Below are positions 9,305 to 12,421 of a stretch of DNA of 34,983 bases, piece by piece. A program made the position numbers and the translations under genes. The notes under the pieces are model-generated. The model was not told the DNA's origin and made no database searches. It worked only from the letters and a program-made list of their open reading frames with translations. Each line of letters starts with the position of its first letter. The first letter of the stretch is position 1. This stretch comes from an uncultured Bacilli bacterium (GTDB lineage Bacteria > Bacillota_I > Bacilli_A > RF39 > UBA660): assembly GCA_944329205.1 (NCBI GenBank), contig CALVHY010000058.1, positions 1-34,983 on the forward strand, read 5' to 3'.

Positions 9305-10309
9305 TTATTTATATAGACCCATATTATGCTTCATTGTAATAAATTTTTCTTTAGCAATACTTCTTGTTATTTTAATGTTTTCATTTAAAATTTGATCTAA
9401 CTTTTCACTATTTATTATTTCTTCATAACGTTTTTGAATACCCCTAATTTCTTCGACAACTACACTTGCAACATATTTTTTAAATTCACCATAGTTTTGG
9501 TTTTTAAAAGCATTTTCAATTTCATTGATGGTTTTTCCAGTTAAAGCAACACATATATTAATTAAGTTGCTAATTCCTGGTTTGTTTAGAGGGTCATATT
9601 TAATTTGACAATCACTATCGGTAGTTGCTCCCATAATTTTCTTTTCAATACTTTTTAGATCATCAAGAAGGCGGATTACCCCTTTTTGATTGGCACTTGA
9701 TTTGCTCATTTTTTTCGTAGGATTAACTAAATCAGTTATTTTGGTACCAAAATCAGTTATATAAGCTTCAGGAACTTTGAAGGTGGGACCGTATTTTTTG
9801 TTGAAACGAGAAGCAATGTTGCGGGCTAGTTCGACATGTTGTTTTTGATCAATGCCAACAGGAACATAATCAACATCATATGCTAGAATATCCGCGGCCA
9901 TTAAAATAGGATAAGTAAATAAGCCGGCCGAAAAATTGGCGTTTTTGCTGCTTTTGTCCTTGAACTGCGTCATGCGGGATAATTCCCCAAAATAAGTATT
10001 GCATTCTAAGAGCCAAGATATATTAGCATGATATTCATTTTCCGATTGAACAAAAATAATGTTTTTATCAGGATCAATTCCACAAGCTATGTATAAGGCG
10101 ACTAAACTGCGAATGTTTTTATGCAACTTCTCGGGATCTTGAGGGACAGTAATCGCATGCATATCCGCAATAAAAATATATGATTTAAACTCATCTTGCA
10201 TTCTTACCATTTGTTTTATGGCCCCAATATAATTGCCTAAAGTAATGATGCCGGATGGTTGAATACCAGTTAAAATAGACTTGGTTATTTTTTGATTAAA
10301 TTCCTTCAT
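9305..10309 (-). CDS. trpS: Tryptophanyl-tRNA synthetase TrpS
   Basis: Class I aminoacyl-tRNA synthetase charging tRNA-Trp. 334 residues, normal. The HIGH-type motif is in PSGIITLGNYIGA (18-30) and the KMSKS motif is TKKMSKSSANQKG near residue 200. YPILMAADILAYDVDYVPVG is the conserved tryptophan/ATP region. The ATG is preceded by AAAGGAAAGTGA. It is a single-gene unit with its own promoter. The leader is only about 25-30 nt, too short for a T-box, so tRNA-sensing control is absent. Confidence 0.98.
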   Translation of the reverse strand: MKEFNQKITKSILTGIQPSGIITLGNYIGAIKQMVRMQDEFKSYIFIADMHAITVPQDPEKLHKNIRSLVALYIACGIDPDKNIIFVQSENEYHANISWLLECNTYFGELSRMTQFKDKSSKNANFSAGLFTYPILMAADILAYDVDYVPVGIDQKQHVELARNIASRFNKKYGPTFKVPEAYITDFGTKITDLVNPTKKMSKSSANQKGVIRLLDDLKSIEKKIMGATTDSDCQIKYDPLNKPGISNLINICVALTGKTINEIENAFKNQNYGEFKKYVASVVVEEIRGIQKRYEEIINSEKLDQILNENIKITRSIAKEKFITMKHNMGLYK

Positions 10310-10989: not shown

Positions 10990-11007
10990 CTATTTTTGGT
11001 TGACACT
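10982..11007 (-). terminator. Inverted repeat at the cotE stop, overlapping the rpsP -35
   Basis: AGTGTCAAC (10982-10990) and GTTGACACT (10999-11007) are perfect 9-bp complements around an 8-nt spacer. One arm includes two bases of the cotE stop (11006-11008); the other contains the rpsP -35 box. The run after the hairpin is CTATC, not T-rich, so termination would be weak. It could instead be an operator acting on the rpsP promoter. Confidence 0.6.
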
Positions 11008-11536
11008 ACTTCAAATATTCCTCATCAATCTCGCTAATTACATCATCGATTTCTTCATCATCAACATCTTCAATCACTTCATAATCATCTTCTTCGTCTT
11101 CAACACTTACTTTAAGCATCGTGTTGCCAACTATTTCCACACCTAATTCTTTTTCAATAACTAAATTTACTATACCATTACTCGTTGATACGTCAGTTAC
11201 GGTAGGCTGGGTTAGACTTCTGACAATGATTTCTTCTTCATCATTTAAGATTGCTCCATCTTTTAGTTTGATATTCATCTTGTCCTCATAAGTATAATGT
11301 TTGGTAGCAACGGCGGTTTTGGTATAATTATAATATGAATACCAAACATTTACATCAAAACTCCCTGTAATGTAGACAACGCCATTTTGAGACCGGCCTT
11401 CAAAAGTGTGATTAATTACCCAACAGCCTAAGACTGTATCAGGAACTTCTTCTGGGGTTACTGCGCACTTTGAAACACTGGTTTTTTTGGCTTTGCCAAT
11501 TACCGCTTTGGTAACTATTTCCTTAAAACTTGCCAA
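11006..11536 (-). CDS. cotE: CotE-family outer spore coat protein homolog
   Basis: A 176-residue protein that aligns by eye with B. subtilis CotE, the morphogenetic protein placing the outer spore coat. The N-terminal FKEIVTKAVIGKAKK corresponds to YREIITKAVVAKGRK; then LGCWVINHTFEG (36-47), FDVNVWYSYYNYTKT, and an acidic tail from about 146 to the end (EDEEDDYEVIEDVDDEEIDD). The start is a TTG (MASFKEI) with GAGGAGGAATC upstream. It is a single gene, divergent from the HIT gene. Whether this organism sporulates cannot be told here; no other spore gene is in the window, and CotE-like proteins in reduced Bacilli may have another role. Confidence 0.87.
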   Translation of the reverse strand: MASFKEIVTKAVIGKAKKTSVSKCAVTPEEVPDTVLGCWVINHTFEGRSQNGVVYITGSFDVNVWYSYYNYTKTAVATKHYTYEDKMNIKLKDGAILNDEEEIIVRSLTQPTVTDVSTSNGIVNLVIEKELGVEIVGNTMLKVSVEDEEDDYEVIEDVDDEEIDDVISEIDEEYLK

Positions 11537-11641: not shown

Positions 11642-12013
11642 ATGGATTGTATTTTTTGCAAGATTACACAGGGTGAGATGCCTAGTAAAGTACTGTTTGA
11701 AGATGAATTAGTCATGGTTATAATGGATGCTAATCCTAATGTGGATGGACATGCTTTAATTATTCCCAAAAAACACTATACAGATTATTTAGATTTAGAT
11801 GAGGAAATTATGGCGCATATATTTGCCGTTGCTAAGAAGATGGGGCCAAAAATTATGGATAAACTTAATGCCCAAGCCTTAACTTTAGTTGTTAATTACG
11901 GAAATTCTCAAGTAGTTAAGCATTTTCATATGCATATTCTTCCTAATTATCACGGAAGTAATAACCTTGCTACGAAAACAGTGGGAGAAATATATGATAT
12001 TTTAAAAGATTAG
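11642..12013 (+). CDS. HIT-family nucleotide hydrolase
   Basis: A histidine-triad protein of 123 residues, likely hydrolysing nucleoside phosphoramidates or dinucleoside polyphosphates. The triad is HFHMHIL with H94, H96 and H98; the N-terminal MDCIFCKITQGEMPSKVLFED has the CxxC and the usual strand. It is one of only two clear plus-strand genes. AGGTGATGAAAAA precedes the ATG, and a perfect TATAAT is at 11617-11622 with a weak -35. It ends at a bidirectional hairpin shared with the double-glycine peptide gene that faces it. Confidence 0.95.
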   Translation: MDCIFCKITQGEMPSKVLFEDELVMVIMDANPNVDGHALIIPKKHYTDYLDLDEEIMAHIFAVAKKMGPKIMDKLNAQALTLVVNYGNSQVVKHFHMHILPNYHGSNNLATKTVGEIYDILKD

Positions 12014-12030
12014 GTGGCCCCTAATCTTTT
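12004..12030. terminator. Bidirectional terminator shared by HIT and the GG-leader peptide gene
   Basis: AAAAGATTAG (12004-12013) and CTAATCTTTT (12021-12030) pair perfectly over 10 bp with a GTGGCCC loop. The HIT TAG (12011-12013) is inside one arm. The opposing peptide gene stops at 12032, 1 nt from the other arm. Both directions end in TTTT-rich tracts, so both genes are terminated here. Confidence 0.85.
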
Positions 12031-12031
12031 G

Positions 12032-12163
12032 TTATTTAAATAATTTTTTCGTTAAATGGCTAATATTTACATTCCTAATTATCCTTTTTAGATAATTTAT
12101 AACAAAACAGATGAGGCAAAAGCCCCCGCTGATACTAGCCAACTCGCGATTATTTAATGGCAT
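12032..12163 (-). CDS. Double-glycine leader peptide: putative bacteriocin or peptide signal precursor
   Basis: A 43-residue ORF with ATG at 12163, AGAAAGGAAATT upstream and TAA at 12032-12034. The N terminus MPLNNRELASISGG fits the double-glycine leader consensus position by position: L at -12, E at -8, L at -7, I at -4, G at -2 and -1. C39-peptidase ABC exporters cut after such GG pairs. The predicted mature peptide has 29 residues: a hydrophobic start with a CxxC (FCLICFVINYL), then a cationic stretch with seven K/R, one H and no acidic residue (first block KRIIRNVNISH). This is the profile of small membrane-active bacteriocins or pheromones. No C39 transporter, immunity or modification gene is in the window, so export is unproven. 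It sits alone between two terminators; a weak promoter (TTAATT, 16 nt, TAGAAT) lies upstream. Gene call likely; function inferred. Confidence 0.72.
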   Translation of the reverse strand: MPLNNRELASISGGFCLICFVINYLKRIIRNVNISHLTKKLFK

Positions 12164-12226
12164 AATTTCCTTTCTAACGAGTGAACATAATTATTCTATC
12201 ATATTAAATAAGTTAATTAAAGAATA

Positions 12227-12249
12227 AAATAGAGAAAAAATCTCTATTT
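12227..12249 (-). terminator. Terminator of the recD2 operon, overlapping the small-protein stop
   Basis: On the minus strand AAATAGAGA (12241-12249) pairs with TCTCTATTT (12227-12235), with a 5-nt loop, followed by TATT. The stop TAG of the 51-aa protein (12244-12246) is inside the 5' arm. Confidence 0.75.
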
Positions 12250-12399
12250 CATAGTGTTAAGTTTATTGTTAGCCATGTCCATAGCATTATTAACAAGCTT
12301 ACTAGCTTTTTTCTTTGTATTTTTATTGTTTAACGCATAAGCCATCATACCGGCTCCAGCAGCCATGGCAAGGACACTTCCAACCATAATTTTTTTCAT
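12244..12399 (-). CDS. Small membrane-anchored protein (51 aa), unknown
   Basis: A short gene: ATG at 12399 with GAGGTG at good spacing and a TAG inside a terminator stem. The product begins MKKIMVGSVLAMAAGAGMMA, one glycine- and alanine-rich TM helix or a signal anchor, followed by a basic stretch NKNTKKKASKL and an amphipathic tail NNAMDMANNKLNTMK. It resembles the general build of YtxH/YrzO-type tiny membrane proteins but I do not recognise the family. It lies 22 bp after recD2 with no terminator between, so it is the last gene of that operon. Confidence 0.75.
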   Translation of the reverse strand: MKKIMVGSVLAMAAGAGMMAYALNNKNTKKKASKLVNNAMDMANNKLNTMK

Positions 12400-12421
12400 A
12401 TCTAGCACCTCAGTAATATTA

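What the first reader, a model, noticed from the sequence alone, without database searches (positions are those of the whole stretch)
12032..12163. Orphan double-glycine leader peptide gene facing the HIT hydrolase
A 43-codon gene with a ribosome site and own terminator encodes LNNRELASISGG, matching the double-glycine leader consensus at -12, -8, -7, -4, -2 and -1. The predicted 29-residue mature peptide is hydrophobic (CxxC) then cationic, with no acidic residue. Seen: leader, SD, terminator. Known: C39-type ABC exporters cleave after GG and export such peptides. Inferred: a bacteriocin or peptide signal, perhaps in a lineage not known for one. It would be easily missed because it is short and lies alone.
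Basis: partly seen in the sequence, partly recalled or inferred. Interest (0 to 1): 0.88.

Follow-up and report, generated by a model that had tools for sequence, protein, structure and literature searches.

The report
Orphan GG-leader peptide exported in trans
A 43-codon gene in an uncultured gut bacterium is a real, conserved gene for a small secreted peptide, almost certainly cut and exported by a dedicated transporter encoded elsewhere in the same genome; that transporter, unreported as far as I could find, occurs in nearly every genome sampled from its order.

Summary
ORF 12032-12163(-) encodes MPLNNRELASISGG|FCLICFVINYLKRIIRNVNISHLTKKLFK. The genome holds one intact C39 peptidase-ABC exporter, on another contig, in an operon with a 137-aa one-helix protein and three more GG-leader peptides. 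Fifteen genomes of the genus carry an orthologue, 10 of them directly convergent to the HIT gene. L/I(-12), L(-7), the -4 residue and GG are kept in all, and dN/dS in the closest pairs is 0.14-0.21.

Three corrections. The core is not freely variable: its N-terminal part varies, but the C-terminus (IRYLMxxLFxD) is conserved. A 20-nt 5' leader, TGTTCACTCGTTAGAAAGGA, is identical in 14 of 15 orthologues and found at that gene only; its end looks like an extended Shine-Dalgarno, the rest is unexplained. The terminator hairpin is shared with HIT.

C39 exporters occur in 350 of 370 genomes sampled from this order; I found no paper reporting the system. Whether the peptide kills (bacteriocin) or signals cannot be settled by sequence: no immunity gene or dedicated receptor adjoins it. 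The kind, an orphan GG peptide, is known; the family and lineage are new.

The parts
12032..12163 (-). Orphan GG-leader peptide gene ('P4'), 43 aa: MPLNNRELASISGG|FCLICFVINYLKRIIRNVNISHLTKKLFK
   Evidence: 15 carriers in the genus; dN/dS 0.14-0.21 in the closest pairs
12122..12163 (-). Leader, 14 codons, L-12 E-8 L-7 I-4 G-2 G-1; predicted C39 cleavage after codon 14
   Evidence: fits the PCAT substrate consensus; L/I-12, L-7, I/V/C-4 and GG kept in 15/15; leader profile matches those of the exporter operon's peptides
12035..12121 (-). Predicted mature 29-mer, charge +6 here; one helix over residues 17-42 in the AlphaFold2 model (mean pLDDT 71)
   Evidence: conserved C-terminal motif of the family (IRYLMxxLFxD; degenerate here as ISHLTKKLFK) from the alignment
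12168..12187 (-). Near-invariant 5' leader element TGTTCACTCGTTAGAAAGGA including the SD
   Evidence: identical in 14/15, three differences in G035; column identity 0.99 against 0.64 for the region upstream; no second close copy with a GG peptide in any carrier genome
12193..12201 (-). Extended -10 promoter-like element TGATAGAAT
   Evidence: TRTGATAWAAT-like sequence at the same distance in the orthologues
12003..12031 (.). Hairpin between the convergent peptide and HIT genes, probable bidirectional terminator
   Evidence: a hairpin of different sequence is predicted after the stop in all 15 orthologues, weakest in G035
11642..12013 (+). HIT-family hydrolase gene, convergent neighbour
   Evidence: Pfam HIT E=1e-23; directly convergent with the peptide in 10 genomes, 2 more with genes inserted between
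12244..12408 (-). Small conserved membrane-like protein upstream of the peptide gene; not part of the system
   Evidence: in non-carriers it adjoins HIT directly (L081, L084)

Best explanation
This is a genuine orphan double-glycine peptide. It is transcribed from its own extended -10 promoter, made with a 14-residue leader, bound by that leader to the C39 peptidase domain of the genome's single peptidase-ABC exporter (encoded in trans on another contig, G000:C21:5424-7478), cut after GG, and released as a 29-residue, mostly helical cationic peptide. Outside the cell I think it most likely acts as a membrane-active, class II bacteriocin-like peptide alongside the three GG peptides of the exporter operon. 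Shown: the ORF, its conservation, purifying selection in close pairs, the exporter with its C39 catalytic motifs, and similar leaders on the exporter's own cargo. Inferred: transcription, cleavage, export and activity. Given export, my split is antimicrobial about 0.5, signal 0.3, other extracellular role 0.2.
For: One C39 exporter in the genome, 684 aa, Pfam C39 + ABC_membrane + ABC_tran. It aligns along its length with PCAT1 (4ry2, E=1.5e-99) and ComA (8hf4, E=7e-82); the Cys (KDCGACC), His (LQHFVV) and Asp (MDPAKG) motifs line up with those of PCAT1. The exporter operon has an accessory protein and three GG peptides in G000, and the same layout in the relatives read. Profile comparison of P4 with operon peptides P1, P2, P3 over full length gives probability 96, 93 and 97%, but under 2% over the cores alone, so the similarity is in the leader. 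15 carriers share leader, 5' element and C-terminus, and one distant homologue lies in another genus. dN/dS 0.14, 0.20, 0.21 in close pairs. A relative's operon peptide (P2 of G014) reaches the class IIb bacteriocin model TIGR03949 (21.6 against a cut-off of 21.5); P4 itself reaches 16.9.
Against: No immunity gene next to the peptide. Conserved C-terminus and mostly vertical inheritance are less typical of arms-race bacteriocins. The hydrophobic moment of the mature peptides does not exceed shuffled composition in most members. The window species has a divergent C-terminus. No expression, processing or activity data.
Confidence: 0.72

Rival explanations
1. The mature peptide is a pheromone: exported by the same C39 transporter and sensed by a receptor on kin cells, with the conserved C-terminus (IRYLMxxLFxD) as the receptor-binding part.
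For: C-terminus conserved across species and in one other genus; a stand-alone gene with its own promoter-like element and near-invariant 5' leader; no immunity gene; mostly vertical inheritance. The genome does have a GHKL kinase and a LytTR regulator, the receptor types used by known GG pheromones.
Against: That kinase and regulator lie beside agrB and an AgrD-like peptide ORF, so their ligand is most likely the Agr cyclic peptide. No receptor gene lies beside P4 or the exporter.
Confidence: 0.28
2. The peptide stays in the cell or membrane (a type I toxin-like or regulatory membrane peptide) and the GG motif is incidental.
For: Small hydrophobic-cationic helix; an unusually conserved 5' leader could be an antisense or sRNA target.
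Against: The leader contact positions are kept in 15/15 orthologues while the adjoining residues vary; leader similarity to the exporter's own cargo; the exporter is present in 33 of the 36 genomes listed as the same genus, counting G000 and leaving out the sub-cut-off hit in G022.
Confidence: 0.06
3. The conserved unit is a non-coding element (5' leader RNA or terminator) and the ORF is incidental.
For: 20 near-invariant nucleotides upstream; the G000 transcript folds better than shuffles (z -3.7).
Against: Low dN/dS in close pairs and protein-level conservation of both ends of the ORF; the fold is not shared by the orthologues; the element ends in an SD placed correctly before the ATG.
Confidence: 0.03

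Closest known systems
Orphan GG peptides of pneumococcus and their peptidase-containing ABC transporters (ComAB/BlpAB/RtgAB)
   Same: GG leader with -12, -7, -4 contacts, exporter encoded elsewhere, several cargo peptides per exporter (PMC7018657)
   Different: Different lineage; short 14-aa leader without a -15 residue; near-invariant 5' leader; conserved C-terminal cargo motif; no ComD- or Rgg-type regulator seen at either locus
PCAT1 and its substrate CtA (Clostridium thermocellum)
   Same: Exporter architecture and the leader consensus LxxxELxxxxGG; the best PDB hit of the P4 profile is the CtA peptide, though not significant (E=0.79)
   Different: CtA has a 24-aa leader and a 66-aa cargo (PMC6959990)
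Class IIb bacteriocins, lactobin A/cerein 7B family (TIGR03949)
   Same: Leader; one operon peptide (P2 of G014) reaches the cut-off
   Different: P4 is below the cut-off (16.9 against 21.5), has no partner peptide beside it and no immunity gene
Mbov_0121-family peptidase-domain ABC transporter of Mycoplasma (NF045998)
   Same: C39 peptidase-domain ABC exporter described from another reduced-genome group
   Different: This exporter scores 324.7 against a cut-off of 500, so it is not a member

Membership tests
Double-glycine-leader peptides (C39/PCAT substrates) | Leader ending GG/GA/GS with hydrophobic -4, -7, -12 contacts | tested here: met
   Met in G000 and kept in 15/15 (one has Cys at -4) (consensus)
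Double-glycine-leader peptides (C39/PCAT substrates) | A C39 exporter with catalytic Cys/His/Asp in the same genome | tested here: met
   One, G000:C21:5424-7478, full length, motifs aligned with PCAT1
Double-glycine-leader peptides (C39/PCAT substrates) | Cleavage after GG and secretion | not testable with these tools
   Needs the purified peptidase domain or a secretion assay
Class II bacteriocin | Reaches a curated bacteriocin model | tested here: inconclusive
   TIGR01847 15.7 bits at cut-off 15.7, a leader-only model; TIGR03949 16.9 below 21.5; no Pfam match
Class II bacteriocin | Adjacent immunity gene | tested here: not met
   No immunity-like gene beside it. A DUF3298 protein adjoins it in 10 of 14 carrier loci read, not in G000; function unknown
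Class II bacteriocin | Antimicrobial activity of the mature peptide | not testable with these tools
   Needs the synthetic peptide
ComC/BlpC-type pheromone | Linked HPK10 kinase/LytTR regulator or Rgg receptor | tested here: not met
   None seen at the P4 or exporter locus; the GHKL/LytTR pair found lies in an agr locus
ComC/BlpC-type pheromone | Match to the ComC family (PF03047) | tested here: not met
   No Pfam match for P4 even at E=10

The most novel reading that the evidence does not exclude
The peptide is a kin signal of an uncultured gut lineage: exported with three companion peptides by a near-universal C39 system, recognised through its conserved C-terminus by an unidentified receptor, and translated under control of the near-invariant 20-nt 5' leader, which would be the binding site of an unknown small RNA or protein.
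Probability: 0.15. Interest if true: 0.8.

Novelty: new member of a known kind. Interest (0 to 1): 0.55.

Why it matters
The lineage is uncultured and its genomes are small (about 1.1 Mb here), yet 350 of 370 sampled genomes of the order keep a C39 peptide-cleaving domain, and the genus keeps three exporter-linked cargo peptides plus, in one clade, this fourth unlinked one. That points to a peptide-secretion function retained through genome reduction. Because the peptides are short and no modification enzyme was seen beside them, they can be synthesised and tested directly without culturing the organism.

Tried and rejected
(1) Other copies of the 5' element as a regulon: up to 3 mismatches in 36 genomes gives only this gene plus scattered chance-like hits. 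(2) A conserved mRNA structure: notable z-score in G000, not in most orthologues. (3) P4 as a duplicate of operon peptide P3: cores do not match in profile comparison (probability 1%), only the leaders do. (4) The LytTR/GHKL pair as P4 receptor: set aside because AgrB and an AgrD-like ORF adjoin it. (5) Plasmid, phage or viral homologues: none. (6) Accessory-protein fold: modelled fairly well (pLDDT 83), but no significant PDB match; weak resemblance to membrane-fusion proteins (best such: 5xu0, prob 0.94, E 0.25). (7) Confirming the anti-SD from the genome's own 16S: no exact match to TGGATCACCTCCTTTCT in the MAG. (9) Amphipathic-helix statistics: not above shuffled composition in most members.

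Full report
What is there. The window belongs to a 1.07-Mb metagenome-assembled genome (G000, 72 contigs, 93% complete). Exact matches to its conserved 5' element in named genomes are uncultured Bacilli/Mycoplasmatota MAGs and Candidatus Caccenecus avistercoris, plus two matches in unrelated genomes without a GG peptide, taken as chance. I believe this is GTDB order RF39, from memory; no paper in the library pairs the names. ORF 12032-12163(-) reads MPLNNRELASISGG|FCLICFVINYLKRIIRNVNISHLTKKLFK. The leader fits the published consensus for C39 substrates at every defined position that its 14 residues can offer. Such a short ORF is not expected by chance: 1 observed, 0 in 200 shuffled windows.

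Exporter. The genome has exactly one C39 peptidase match. It is a 684-aa protein with C39, ABC-membrane and ATPase domains, aligned along its length with PCAT1 and ComA, with the catalytic motifs in place. Behind it come a 137-aa protein with one predicted long helix and a beta domain and three GG peptides P1, P2, P3. Most relatives whose operon was read keep the same order: C39, accessory, P1, P2, P3. The exceptions are G029 and G036, where my motif scan found no P1, and G033, where it found no P2; I did not check these by eye. The accessory frame was recovered in 31 of 33 operons. C39 matches over the cut-off occur in 33 of the 36 genomes listed as the same genus (counting G000; the 56%-complete G022 has only a sub-cut-off match), and 350 of 370 genomes drawn from the order have a match.

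Orthologues of the window peptide. Protein and profile searches, neighbourhood reading and the 5' element give 15 carriers in the genus: G000, 003, 006, 007, 008, 009, 016, 020, 023, 026, 028, 029, 030, 034, 035. On the exporter tree, which holds 14 of them (no exporter was found in the 80%-complete G006), 13 carriers fall in one supported group with a single non-carrier (G032, 72% complete, HIT only as a fragment), and G035 lies just outside. Ten carriers have the peptide directly convergent to HIT, G008 and G020 have extra genes between, and contig ends hide the rest. In the non-carriers L081 and L084, HIT adjoins the ytxH-like gene directly. One more homologue, MKNLSNRELDLITGG|SFFNSFELLYKIYRILKIKFLMNKLFID, lies in another genus, G141, without the HIT neighbour and without the 5' element.

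Conservation. Leader positions L/I-12, L-7, I/V/C-4 and GG are kept in all 15. The middle of the peptide varies in sequence and length; the C-terminus (IRYLMxxLFxD) is conserved, though degenerate in the window species. In three of the closest pairs dN/dS is 0.14, 0.20 and 0.21; more distant pairs range from about 0.4 to 1.1 with high dS and are not informative; across all pairs pN is below pS in 104 of 105. A hairpin is predicted after the stop in all 15, with different stem sequences.

The 5' leader. TGTTCACTCGTTAGAAAGGA is identical in 14 carriers and has three differences in G035, with column identity 0.99 against 0.64 farther upstream; an extended -10 sits at a fixed distance before it. 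Its end, TTAGAAAGGA, looks like an extended Shine-Dalgarno matching the usual Bacilli 16S tail (my knowledge; the genome's own tail was not found). The first ten bases have no explanation. No other gene in the genus carries it consistently at up to 3 mismatches. In carriers with a DUF3298 gene immediately upstream, that gene ends 15 bases before the CACTC core, so its stop codon lies inside the -10 element.

Mechanism. P4 shares leaders, but not cores, with P1-P3, and there is only one exporter, so export in trans by that exporter is the simplest reading; orphan GG peptides exported by a distant transporter are already described in pneumococcus. Function outside the cell is open. For an antimicrobial: small cationic helix and a relative's operon peptide at the class IIb cut-off. 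Against it: no immunity gene, conserved C-terminus, vertical inheritance. For a signal: the conserved C-terminus and private regulation. Against it: no receptor beside it, and the one clear LytTR/GHKL pair lies in an agr locus.

Novelty. The kind is known (orphan GG peptide, C39 exporter). The family is new to Pfam at E=10, and my literature searches found no report of this system in the lineage; the library is open-access only, so absence there is weak evidence.

Noticed in passing
window 11006-11536 (-): CotE, outer spore coat protein E (PF10628, E=1.3e-42), in a ~1.1-Mb reduced genome; a gene with the same start (LASFKEIVTKAVIGKAKK) sits beside HIT in several other genus loci.
   Followed up: partly
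L002:7900-8325 and operon loci L168-L199: P2 and P3 of the exporter operon carry a C-terminal Cys together or lack it together, except G033 (P2 not found) and G011 (P3 without Cys; my region ends at the contig end, so it may be cut). Suggests an inter-peptide disulfide, but only 2-5 independent changes support it.
   Followed up: partly
L163:7544-10436: agr-like locus in the same genome: LytTR regulator, GHKL kinase, AgrB and an AgrD-like ORF (MFELLANLLSGVATASVGDARTIWLVWDEPTCPEELL) on the minus strand near 9813.
   Followed up: partly
L112, L113, L114, L115, L116, L117, L120, L121, L122, L125, from about 570 to 15 bases upstream of the CACTC core: A DUF3298 protein with no obvious signal peptide lies directly upstream of the peptide gene in these carriers but not in the window species, its stop codon inside the peptide gene's -10 element.
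   Followed up: partly
window 12177-12187 (-): The first part of the 5' leader (TGTTCACTCGT) has no known role; it is not explained by the Shine-Dalgarno.
   Followed up: partly
L002:7472-7885: Accessory protein of the exporter operon: one long helix plus a beta domain, no Pfam family, weak fold resemblance to membrane-fusion proteins.
   Followed up: partly
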